A stretch of DNA of 64,000 nucleotides from positions 1 through 64,000 of the forward strand of contig NZ_BATM01000007.1 in the NCBI RefSeq assembly GCF_000467185.1, in the 5' to 3' direction. The translations under genes and the position numbers were made by a program. Source of the DNA: Vibrio ezurae NBRC 102218. GTDB taxonomy: Bacteria > Pseudomonadota > Gammaproteobacteria > Enterobacterales > Vibrionaceae. Of this stretch, positions 13,845-16,137 are shown in pieces (the stretch's first letter is position 1; each line of letters begins with the position of its first letter). Below the pieces are notes generated by a model, which worked only from the letters and a program-made list of their open reading frames with translations, had not been told where the DNA came from and did no database searches.

Positions 13845-13930
13845 AGTGAAACTCTCTTTTCATACCAGTAATGTTAGGTTGCATGTGAATTTGTTGTGAT
13901 CAAGCGCACCTTGACCTAGATTAATTGCAC

Positions 13931-13986
13931 AGGTGATGGGGTTCCACCTACTTAACCGCCAAATCATTGGCTGATGACTCCTACTA
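13931..13986 (+). ncRNA. Fluoride riboswitch (crcB motif) aptamer
   Basis: The sequence fits the fluoride aptamer base for base where it matters. P1 is AGGTG (13931) with CACCT, enclosing the conserved ATGGGGTTC loop. P3 is GCCA with TGGC around AAATCAT. The 3' end is CTGATGACTCCTAC. The loop GGGGT pairs with ACTCC to form the pseudoknot helix that builds the fluoride/Mg pocket. It is in sense orientation about 150 bases before the IscU-like gene, with no other gene between. The expression platform (13987-14135) shows no clear terminator, so the output mechanism is not resolved. In known cases fluoride binding turns the gene on. Confidence 0.93.
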
Positions 13987-14135
13987 AAATCGAAAGCAGT
14001 GACGTATTTATCTTAGGATAATTGTAGCTAGTACTATTATGGTGCTCGGTTTGGTAGGGTGTATCTTCAATTCTCATTCTGCCCATTCTTCACTGTTTTC
14101 CCAAGCTTAATTCATTTGTTAGAGCGGAAAACACT

Positions 14136-14828
14136 ATGCATTACACAAACGAAATTCAATCAATGTGCCCAATTCAACGTGGCGACCTACATGCTTCTTC
14201 TCCAATCCCAGTAGAAGGCCGCATGATTAACCCTAAAGAAGTTATTGCAATTTCTGGCCTAAGCCACGGTGTGGGCGGTTGTGCTCCACAACAAGGCGCT
14301 GCAAAACTAACTTTAAACGTTAAAGAAGGCATCATTGAAGAAGTGCTAATCGAAACTATCGGTTGTTCAGGCATGACTCAATCAGCAGCTATGGCGTCTG
14401 AAATTCTTACAGGCAAAACAATTCTTGAAGCAATGAACACTGACTTAGTGTGTGATGCAATTAACGTAGCAATGCGTGAAATCTTCCTTCAGTTCACTTA
14501 CGGTCGTACTCAATCTGCATTCTCTGATGGCGGTCTAGAAGTGGGTGAAGCGCTAGAAGATCTAGGTCAAACACTACGTAGCCAAGTGGGTACAAGCTAC
14601 TCAACTAAAGCTAAAGGCGTTCGTTACATGGAAATCGCTGAAGGCTACGTGACTAAAATGGGTCTTGATGAAAACGATGAAGTTATCGGTTATCAATACA
14701 TGAACCTAGGCAAGTTCATGAAAGCACTTGATGCTGGCGTTGATGCAGAAACTGCACTAGCTCAAGCAAGTGGTCAATACGGCCGTTTTGCAGAAGCTGT
14801 TAAAACTATCAACCCACGTCAACAGTAA
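14136..14828 (+). CDS. IscU/NifU-like Fe-S scaffold family protein
   Basis: 230 residues. The first half resembles the IscU/NifU N-terminal scaffold fold: GCAPQQGAAKLTLNVKEGII, then the cysteine-centred ETIGCSGMTQSAAMASEILT, and EAMNTDLVCDAINVAMREIF. Cys residues near 48, 80 and 107 are placed like the cluster ligands of IscU. The C-terminal part (residues 150-230) is specific to this family. It is co-transcribed with the GGGtGRT gene 17 bases downstream and sits behind a fluoride riboswitch. Codon choice is strongly biased (CGT, GGT, CTA), which suggests high expression. Cluster binding is inferred from the fold; the biological target is not known to me. Confidence 0.8.
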   Translation: MHYTNEIQSMCPIQRGDLHASSPIPVEGRMINPKEVIAISGLSHGVGGCAPQQGAAKLTLNVKEGIIEEVLIETIGCSGMTQSAAMASEILTGKTILEAMNTDLVCDAINVAMREIFLQFTYGRTQSAFSDGGLEVGEALEDLGQTLRSQVGTSYSTKAKGVRYMEIAEGYVTKMGLDENDEVIGYQYMNLGKFMKALDAGVDAETALAQASGQYGRFAEAVKTINPRQQ

Positions 14829-14845
14829 GCGAAGAGGACTGAATC

Positions 14846-15829
14846 ATGAACAACGCAACTCAAGCTCTATTAGCAGAAATGAACTTAAAATCTTTAGAAG
14901 AAGCGGCTGCTTATTGTAAAGAATTCGGCATTGATACCCGTGAACAAGTCATGGAAACTCAGCCTATCGCTTTTGAAAGTGCAGTAGACGCGTACACACT
15001 AGGTACGGCTTACGCATTATTCACAGACAGCAAATCTTCTATCGAAGCGGCAAATGCTATCGGTAAAGGTCTACAAGCATCTTGTAAACCAGGTAGCGTT
15101 GCTGACCAACGTCAAGTTGGTATCGGTCACGGTGCTCTAGCGGCTCGTCTTCTTGACGAAAAAAGCACATGTTTTGCTTTCCTAGCAGGTCACGAATCAT
15201 TTGCGGCTGCTGAAGGTGCAATCAAAATCGCACTTAACGTAAACAAAGCACGTACTACTCCATTAAAAGTTATTCTAAATGGTCTAGGTAAAGATGCGGC
15301 TTACCTTATCTCTCGTATCAACGGTTTCACTTACGTGAGAACTCAATTTGATTACGATACTGGCGAGCTAAAAGAAGTAGAACGTCGTCGTTTCTCTCAA
15401 GGTCCTCGTGGCGAGATTGATTGTTACGGTGCGGATGATGTACGTGAAGGTGTGGCTATCATGCGTAACGCTGGTGTTGACGTAAGTATCACTGGTAACT
15501 CAACTAACCCTACACGTTTCCAACACCCGGTTGCTGGTATCTACAAATCAGAATGTAACCGTGACGGTAAATCATACTTCTCTGTAGCTTCAGGTGGCGG
15601 TACTGGTCGTACTCTACACCCAGATAACGTAGCCGCAGGTCCTGCATCTTACGGTATGACAGATACTATGGGTCGTATGCACGCTGACGCTCAGTTTGCT
15701 GGTAGCTCTTCTGTACCTGCTCACGTAGCGATGATGGGCTTCATCGGCATGGGTAACAACCCAATGGTAGGTGCGTCAGTAGCACTTGCTGTAGCAGTAG
15801 ATGAAGCACTTAAAGCGAAACGCGCTTAA
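14846..15829 (+). CDS. GGGtGRT family protein
   Basis: 327 residues. It carries the family-naming motif SGGGTGRTLHPDNVAAGPASYG near residue 250 (the GGGTGRT heptad) and the Gly-rich HVAMMGFIGMGNNPMVGASV near the C-terminus. Further conserved parts are GKGLQASCKPGSVADQRQVG, and GHGALAARLLDEKSTCFAFLAGHESFAAAEGA, given here only by their key residues G, H, C and E. The family is conserved but its reaction is not established as far as I know. It is always worth reading with its partner, the IscU-like gene 17 bases upstream. GAGGA precedes the ATG, and codon use is again highly biased. It is presumably controlled by the same fluoride riboswitch. Confidence 0.88.
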   Translation: MNNATQALLAEMNLKSLEEAAAYCKEFGIDTREQVMETQPIAFESAVDAYTLGTAYALFTDSKSSIEAANAIGKGLQASCKPGSVADQRQVGIGHGALAARLLDEKSTCFAFLAGHESFAAAEGAIKIALNVNKARTTPLKVILNGLGKDAAYLISRINGFTYVRTQFDYDTGELKEVERRRFSQGPRGEIDCYGADDVREGVAIMRNAGVDVSITGNSTNPTRFQHPVAGIYKSECNRDGKSYFSVASGGGTGRTLHPDNVAAGPASYGMTDTMGRMHADAQFAGSSSVPAHVAMMGFIGMGNNPMVGASVALAVAVDEALKAKRA

Positions 15830-16097: not shown

Positions 16098-16137
16098 AGA
16101 GCAAACTCATAGTCTTGGGTTTGCTCTTTTTCTTTTC
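16098..16137 (+). terminator. Rho-independent terminator
   Basis: AGAGCAAAC (16098-16106) pairs with GTTTGCTCT (16119-16127), followed by TTTTCTTTT. It ends the riboswitch/IscU-like/GGGtGRT transcript, or attenuates argO 80 bases downstream. Confidence 0.85.

What the first reader, a model, noticed from the sequence alone, without database searches (positions are those of the whole stretch)
13931..15829. Fluoride riboswitch controlling an Fe-S scaffold-like/GGGtGRT gene pair
The aptamer is a base-level match to the crcB motif (P1, pseudoknot GGGGT/ACTCC, P3, and CTGATGACTCCTAC). The only genes in line downstream are the IscU-like and GGGtGRT genes, neither being a fluoride channel, CLC-F antiporter, enolase or pyrophosphatase. 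This links a protein pair of unknown role to fluoride stress, which harms metal-dependent enzymes.
Basis: partly seen in the sequence, partly recalled or inferred. Interest (0 to 1): 0.78.

Follow-up and report, generated by a model that had tools for sequence, protein, structure and literature searches.

The report
Fluoride switch on iron-sulfur gene pair
A fluoride-sensing RNA sits in front of a two-gene unit of unknown function that looks like iron-sulfur machinery, and some distant bacteria place the same gene pair in fluoride-controlled operons, one together with a fluoride channel gene, which ties the pair to fluoride defence.

Summary
Window 13923-13990 is a full fluoride riboswitch aptamer (RF01734, 62.1 bits, cut-off 34), the only one found in this genome. 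It leads a NifU/IscU-like gene (14136-14828) and a GGGtGRT gene (14846-15829). It is not a one-off: among 295 genomes of the order, 22 of the 45 with GGGtGRT have the aptamer 787-961 nt upstream on the same strand. The leader carries a conserved predicted translational platform: the segment that can mask the ribosome site can instead pair with a segment just after the aptamer, and the aptamer's 3' end can form a competing helix. Elsewhere GGGtGRT genes lie in fluoride operons: riboswitch-crcB-DUF190-nifU-GGGtGRT, riboswitch-dynamin GTPase-nifU-GGGtGRT, and a divergent GGGtGRT between a Na+/H+ antiporter and enolase behind a riboswitch. Two genomes of another class have riboswitches on both crcB and nifU-GGGtGRT. 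Yet 75 of 80 named GGGtGRT loci, mostly from anaerobes, showed no adjacent riboswitch, and published data link the family to iron. Best reading: an accessory iron/Fe-S module recruited into fluoride defence. Fluoride control is well supported by sequence; the biochemistry is inferred and untested.

The parts
13894..13922 (+). weak promoter-like hexamers TTGTGA-N17-TAGATT just 5' of the aptamer
   Evidence: read by eye; 8 of 12 matches, below the threshold of the scan, so not reported there
13923..13990 (+). fluoride riboswitch aptamer (RF01734)
   Evidence: 62.1 bits, E 7.7e-15; only one found in genome G000; pseudoknot covariation
13979..13988 (+). 5' arm of competing helix H1 (TCCTACTAAA), overlaps the aptamer's pseudoknot strand
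   Evidence: 10 pairs with 14050-14059; 2 of 2000 shuffled spacers reach 10
13992..14002 (+). segment A (GAAAGCAGTGA), predicted anti-anti-Shine-Dalgarno
   Evidence: 11 pairs with 14090-14100; A and B found in 22 of 24 distinct leaders
14050..14059 (+). 3' arm of H1 (TTTGGTAGGG)
14090..14101 (+). segment B (TCACTGTTTTCC), pairs with A or with the Shine-Dalgarno segment
14126..14133 (+). segment C (GGAAAACA), Shine-Dalgarno region, 8 of 8 complementary to B
14136..14828 (+). NifU/IscU-like protein, 230 aa, invariant Cys 49, 77, 106
   Evidence: PF01592 24.1 bits; IscU structures by sequence and fold; alignment A4
14846..15829 (+). GGGtGRT protein, 327 aa
   Evidence: PF14057 554.3 bits
16098..16127 (+). 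intrinsic-terminator-like hairpin that may end the unit
   Evidence: consensus match only (1 found, 1.8 expected in shuffles)

Best explanation
A fluoride-ON riboswitch that most likely works on translation controls a two-gene nifU-like/GGGtGRT unit, and that unit is part of the cell's fluoride response. Without fluoride, the aptamer's 3' strand pairs with a downstream segment (H1), which traps segment A, leaves segment B free and lets B cover the ribosome site C. With fluoride the aptamer holds its 3' strand, A pairs with B and the ribosome site is free. The gene pair probably handles iron or Fe-S clusters as an accessory module, made in excess or as a bypass when fluoride hampers metal-dependent enzymes. 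Shown by sequence: aptamer, its conserved place, complementarity and co-variation of the leader, constant gene pairing, and operons shared with known fluoride genes in some relatives. Inferred: direction of the switch, translation as the level of control, and the iron/Fe-S role. My estimates: fluoride control of the pair 0.92; translational ON mechanism 0.75; iron/Fe-S role 0.55; protection against fluoride 0.6.
For: Aptamer 62.1 bits. Order sample of 295 genomes: RF01734 in 47, PF14057 in 45, both in 23 (one of these, G028, only with a sub-threshold aptamer), and in 22 of those 23 they are adjacent on one strand. Of 24 distinct leaders, 22 carry A and B; A:B runs 9-13 pairs, stays paired at columns 8 and 9 where the letters change, reaches 10 or more in 7 leaders, and no shuffle of partners matches it (0 of 5000). 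B:C is 8 of 8 in 16 of the 22 leaders and 6-7 in the six f2 leaders. H1 has 7 or more pairs in 17 of the 18 leaders outside f2 and 10 pairs in two genomes of another class. All 22 linked genomes also carry exactly one CrcB gene without a neighbouring aptamer and no CLC above 29% identity to CLC-F. In G496 and G916 one aptamer leads crcB and the other leads nifU-GGGtGRT. G1131: aptamer (64.5 bits)-crcB-DUF190-nifU-GGGtGRT, with aptamer-CLC-F beside it. G1158: aptamer-dynamin GTPase-nifU-GGGtGRT, then aptamer-Na+/H+ antiporter; G1277: aptamer-GTPase-antiporter-divergent GGGtGRT-enolase. Draconibacterium L123: crcB-DUF190-nifU-GGGtGRT-C_GCAxxG_C_C-enolase without an aptamer. GGGtGRT tree: the riboswitch label needs 5 changes, at least 4 forced by supported branches. 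Iron: B. thetaiotaomicron GGGtGRT-nifU pair 11-12.8-fold lower in iron depletion (PMC10434189, passages); C. pasteurianum GGGtGRT protein 7.1-fold higher with iron in early and 2.2-fold in late phase (PMC5395762, passages).
Against: Of the 80 GGGtGRT loci from named genomes only 5 (all marine-type Gammaproteobacteria) have an adjacent aptamer by my model, and Rfam on 50 of those 80 genomes agrees; so fluoride control is a minority arrangement and the pair's core role need not concern fluoride. My model R1 is trained on this order and may miss divergent aptamers. The window leader's predicted minimum-energy fold already has A:B formed (ON) and its stability is ordinary (z -0.92; 37 of 200 shuffles fold as well), so the model needs kinetic control. 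Columns 1-7 of A:B were chosen by motif and do not count as covariation; 8-pair B:C complementarity arises in 605 of 2000 shuffles, so it rests on conservation. The six f2 leaders have weak H1 (best duplex 5-7 pairs, some with other segments). G922, of the same family as G496/G916, has the pair without an adjacent aptamer although it has three aptamers on other genes. Of 14 genomes with PF14057 in the Thermodesulfobacteriota sample two showed an aptamer-led pair. No binding, expression or phenotype data.
Confidence: 0.75

Rival explanations
1. The riboswitch is real and controls the pair, but the pair is a general anaerobic iron/Fe-S function; fluoride is read only as a proxy (for example as a sign of acid or marine/sediment conditions), and the pair does not itself protect against fluoride.
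For: 75 of 80 named GGGtGRT loci, mostly from anaerobes, have no adjacent aptamer; published iron dependence in two phyla; apart from the pair and antisense shadow frames, no neighbour family recurs in more than 7 of the 80 named loci.
Against: Placement in one operon or cluster with crcB, DUF190, Na+/H+ antiporter or enolase in several lineages and a divergent GGGtGRT without nifU in such an operon.
Confidence: 0.3
2. The aptamer regulates by transcription termination rather than translation.
For: In many cases predicted terminators overlap crcB-motif RNAs (PMC2864571, passage seen).
Against: No terminator-like hairpin with a T run between aptamer and start codon in the window (run on the window only); the conserved feature is complementarity to the ribosome site.
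Confidence: 0.12
3. Chance adjacency or a remnant: the aptamer once served an exporter that was lost, and has no present role for the pair.
For: In the same genus two genomes have the aptamer on CLC-F instead.
Against: Conserved position and leader in 22 genomes over five families, and separate gains or losses elsewhere.
Confidence: 0.03

Closest known systems
Fluoride riboswitch (crcB motif, RF01734)
   Same: Sequence, P1/pseudoknot/P3 structure and conserved 3' strand.
   Different: Target genes. The 2010 description names mutS, K+/Cl- transport and formate hydrogenlyase genes (PMC2864571, passages); a 2024 review names exporters, Na+/H+ antiporters, pyrophosphatase, HAD phosphatases, enolase, formate hydrogenlyase and chorismate mutase, with 0 occurrences of 'iron' or 'NifU' in its main text (PMC11139923, passages and word counts).
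IscU/NifU N-terminal scaffold family (PF01592)
   Same: IscU fold in roughly the first 110 residues and three invariant cysteines.
   Different: No Asp after the first Cys (Cys-Ala-Pro instead of the recalled IscU Cys-Gly-Asp), shorter spacing to the third Cys (recalled for IscU), an extra C-terminal part of about 110 residues, far below the IscU/NifU equivalog cut-offs; the genome also has a canonical scaffold match at 182 bits.
GGGtGRT protein family (PF14057)
   Same: Full-length match, 554 bits.
   Different: Pfam's description gives no function for the family; here it is under an aptamer. No credible solved relative by sequence; the predicted model has no Foldseek match below E 0.001, and residues 102-309 resemble Rossmann-like folds only at middling Z about 9.
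Fluoride-responsive resistance operons (crcB, CLC-F, enolase, pyrophosphatase, Na+/H+ antiporter)
   Same: In some genomes of another phylum the pair sits inside such operons.
   Different: In the window the pair stands alone behind the aptamer; the fluoride channel gene is elsewhere and has no aptamer.

Membership tests
Fluoride riboswitch RF01734 | covariance-model score above the curated gathering score | tested here: met
   62.1 against 34 bits
Fluoride riboswitch RF01734 | P1, pseudoknot and P3 supported by covariation | tested here: met
   25 aptamers, 93.8% of cells paired, 36 two-sided cells against 11.7 shuffled; two of the five measures do not beat the shuffles
Fluoride riboswitch RF01734 | binds fluoride with Mg2+ | not testable with these tools
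   needs in-line probing
Translational riboswitch | mutually exclusive pairing of a ribosome-site-masking segment, conserved in relatives | tested here: met
   A and B in 22 of 24 leaders, B:C 6-8 of 8; prediction only
Translational riboswitch | ligand changes ribosome access | not testable with these tools
   needs reporter or toeprint assay
NifU_N family PF01592 | score above the gathering cut-off | tested here: met
   24.1 against 22 bits; some relatives fall below it, 18.6 bits in L175
NifU_N family PF01592 | three cluster-binding cysteines | tested here: met
   C49, C77, C106 invariant in 44 sequences; that they bind a cluster is not tested
IscU equivalog (TIGR01999) | score above the curated cut-off | tested here: not met
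   23.4 against 192.4 bits
IscU equivalog (TIGR01999) | Cys-Gly-Asp at the first cysteine (recalled motif) | tested here: not met
   Cys-Ala-Pro in the alignment
GGGtGRT PF14057 | score above the gathering cut-off | tested here: met
   554.3 against 27 bits
PLP fold-type II enzymes (considered for GGGtGRT) | same fold | tested here: inconclusive
   one weak threonine-synthase hit (19.9 bits; hhalign 18%); not among the listed PDB rows

The most novel reading that the evidence does not exclude
The nifU-like/GGGtGRT pair is an unrecognised fluoride-defence module: a dedicated, self-contained Fe-S or iron-rescue system, with a GGGtGRT protein of unassigned fold, that keeps Fe-S enzymes working when intracellular fluoride blocks normal metal handling. 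This would make Fe-S metabolism an important and so far unnoticed target of fluoride.
Probability: 0.35. Interest if true: 0.85.

Novelty: new variant of a known kind. Interest (0 to 1): 0.75.

Why it matters
The fluoride link gives a testable phenotype. It also suggests that Fe-S or iron metabolism belongs beside glycolysis, pyrophosphate and proton balance among the processes fluoride harms, and it points to a second recurring riboswitch target, a dynamin-like GTPase.

Tried and rejected
PLP-enzyme idea for GGGtGRT: a 19.9-bit threonine-synthase hit suggested a shared motif; profile comparison gave 18% probability and the structure searches did not list PLP enzymes; dropped as unsupported. 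Solved-structure search for GGGtGRT by sequence or profile: nothing credible. Neighbourhood clustering of the 80 named loci: besides the pair and antisense shadow frames over it, no family recurs in more than 7 loci; that clustering kept the pair itself in 68 loci only, because of how frames were picked. Upstream transcription-factor site: a CRP/FNR-like dyad matched a loose pattern in 16 of 29 leaders, duplicates included, too loose to claim. Energy of the leader fold is not exceptional. A transcriptional terminator in the window leader was looked for and not found. The Baker 2012 paper and its tables could not be read, so I cannot exclude that this target is listed there. Literature searches that gave no linking paper. 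Of the 9 papers that mention GGGtGRT I opened 2, as passages; the other 7 I saw as a listing only, as I did most papers. Passages on fluoride riboswitches in PMC9495176 and PMC7266159 named no such target. A 2011 Shewanella regulon study scanned Rfam and in the passages I read lists eight riboswitch families without fluoride (PMC3223726).

Errors of mine: one search translated the wrong range; the query labelled CrcB was a wrong reading frame whose hits were DUF190 genes, corrected; minus-strand loci were first read unturned and redone; one search left L095 unpaired because its GGGtGRT frame runs off the contig, and one search shows that its NifU-like gene is there. L016 and L065 lack the A/B motif and were left out of the A:B counts.

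Full report
1. The observation. The whole window scanned against Rfam gives one fluoride riboswitch at 13923-13990, 62.1 bits against a cut-off of 34, and a search of the whole genome found no second one. The next two same-strand genes are a NifU_N-like protein (24.1 bits, cut-off 22) and a GGGtGRT protein (554.3 bits). A terminator-like hairpin at 16098-16127 follows the unit and no plus-strand promoter-like site was found between aptamer and genes; both rest on simple consensus scans. The genome has a canonical scaffold match elsewhere (182 bits), so this NifU-like gene is accessory. The source looks Vibrio-like: the nearest named GGGtGRT relative is from Vibrio fluminensis (83%); I did not test the species.

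2. Conserved linkage. In 295 genomes of the order, 47 have the aptamer (44 over the cut-off) and 45 have GGGtGRT. Both occur in 23 genomes; 22 have them adjacent, with 787-961 nt between aptamer and GGGtGRT domain that hold the NifU-like gene, and the 23rd (G028) has only a sub-threshold aptamer elsewhere. The 22 come from five families. The other 23 GGGtGRT genomes are 15 of family f3 (which groups with Succinivibrio), six of one genus (f10, g11) and two others. All 22 linked genomes have exactly one CrcB gene, elsewhere and without an aptamer, and CLC proteins of at most 29% identity to CLC-F or none found. Two genomes of the same genus (G083, G209) and one of the same family (G259) use the aptamer for a CLC-F gene, and no CrcB or GGGtGRT was found in them.

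3. The leader. I compared 29 linked leaders, 24 distinct. In 22 of 24 a segment right after the aptamer (A) is complementary to a segment (B) near the start codon, and B is also complementary to the ribosome-binding segment (C): 8 of 8 positions in 16 leaders, 6-7 in the six f2 leaders. The first seven A:B columns were picked by motif; the independent evidence is that columns 8 and 9 change while staying paired and that the run extends to 10-13 pairs in seven leaders, a match that no shuffle of partners reached (0 of 5000). A third helix, H1, joins the aptamer's 3' strand to a stretch between A and B; as a nested fold it excludes A:B. Its best duplex has at least 7 pairs in 17 of the 18 leaders outside f2, and 6 in L016; the six f2 leaders have 5-7, some with other segments. 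In the window H1 has 10 pairs, reached by 2 of 2000 shuffled spacers. The two divergent leaders L016 and L065 have other hairpins over the ribosome site. This fits a switch in which fluoride holds the aptamer, blocks H1, lets A take B and frees the ribosome site. The predicted minimum-energy fold of the window leader has A:B formed, so the OFF state would have to be set kinetically during transcription; this is inference.

4. Other lineages. In a sample of 398 genomes of the phylum, 10 pass the family cut-off; the one outside the order is G496. In G496's order 3 of 248 genomes have GGGtGRT, all in one family. Two of them have the aptamer (55.9 bits) in front of nifU-GGGtGRT and a second aptamer roughly 60-110 nt upstream of crcB. 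The third, G922, has aptamers before crcB, a Na+/H+ antiporter and a dynamin-like GTPase, and none beside its pair. In the phylum of the Desulfoarculaceae genome G336, 14 of 395 genomes have PF14057 matches, one of them a fragment. Two of these carry the pair in an aptamer-led operon: G1131 with crcB and DUF190 first and aptamer-CLC-F next to it (CLC-F 52% identical to that of G209), and G1158 with a dynamin-like GTPase first and aptamer-Na+/H+ antiporter next to it. Two is a lower bound, because longer stretches were read for only six of the 14. A third, G1277, has an aptamer-led run GTPase, Na+/H+ antiporter, divergent GGGtGRT (74.5 bits), enolase, besides a normal pair elsewhere without an aptamer. 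The Bacteroidota locus L123 has crcB, DUF190, nifU, GGGtGRT, C_GCAxxG_C_C and enolase in one direction without an aptamer.

5. How often not. From 80 named GGGtGRT loci (the best 80 of 583), 5 have an adjacent aptamer by my covariance model: Vibrio fluminensis, two Shewanella, Aliivibrio sifiae, Photobacterium aquae. Rfam on 50 of the 80 genomes found aptamers in 11; 4 are marine ones with the linked arrangement, and by coordinates none of the other 7 has its aptamer beside the GGGtGRT locus. On the GGGtGRT tree the aptamer label needs five changes, at least four forced, so it was gained or lost several times.

6. The proteins. The NifU-like gene stands next to or just before GGGtGRT in all 110 loci looked at (L031-L140; 109, L095). 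The NifU-like protein has three invariant cysteines in 44 sequences; its model is of moderate confidence (pLDDT 72.6) and matches IscU structures over about 98 residues. GGGtGRT gives a confident model (pLDDT 88.4), with the motif loop 252-262 the least sure part, and no close solved relative was found. Published data tie the family to iron: lower in iron depletion in Bacteroides thetaiotaomicron (PMC10434189, passages) and higher with iron in Clostridium pasteurianum (PMC5395762, passages).

7. Reading. The riboswitch link passes the sequence tests I could make. What the pair does is inferred from its IscU-like half, the iron data and its company. I think an accessory iron/Fe-S module raised under fluoride is most likely, parallel to making more enolase or pyrophosphatase. 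The alternative that fluoride is only a proxy signal is weaker because of the shared operons, but it is not excluded. Searches for a paper joining the family to fluoride found none in the library; the 2012 paper on fluoride riboswitches and resistance genes was not held, so priority is open.

Noticed in passing
L155 1656-3059 (+), L174 11032-12693 (-), L175 2170-3834 (+): A dynamin-family GTPase follows a fluoride riboswitch in three genomes, a target not named in the review passages that I read.
   Followed up: partly
L174 8621-9649 (-): A divergent GGGtGRT paralog (74.5 bits, about 25% identical to the usual one) without a NifU partner, between a Na+/H+ antiporter and enolase behind a fluoride riboswitch.
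   Followed up: partly
L175 7235-7291 (+): nhaA-I RNA (RF03057, 40.1 bits) just after the fluoride-riboswitch-led Na+/H+ antiporter gene.
   Followed up: no
G237:C224:4436-4702 and G011:C34:175468-175629: Broken crcB remnants with in-frame stops (the second one weak, 23.5 bits) lie beside aptamer-led CLC-F genes, as if one exporter replaced the other.
   Followed up: no
window 13911-13924 and about 15-30 nt before P1 in relatives: A loose CRP/FNR-like dyad overlaps the putative promoter in 16 of 29 leaders, duplicates included, perhaps a second input such as oxygen.
   Followed up: partly
L128 9882-9959 (+): A possible weak fluoride aptamer (12.6 bits by model R1) about 3 kb downstream of GGGtGRT in a Bacteroidaceae genome; the Rfam search of that genome listed none.
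   Followed up: no
G009, G034, G055, G109, G124, G137: One genus has the pair and CLC-F (65-66% identical to that of G209), but no riboswitch and no CrcB was found in it.
   Followed up: no
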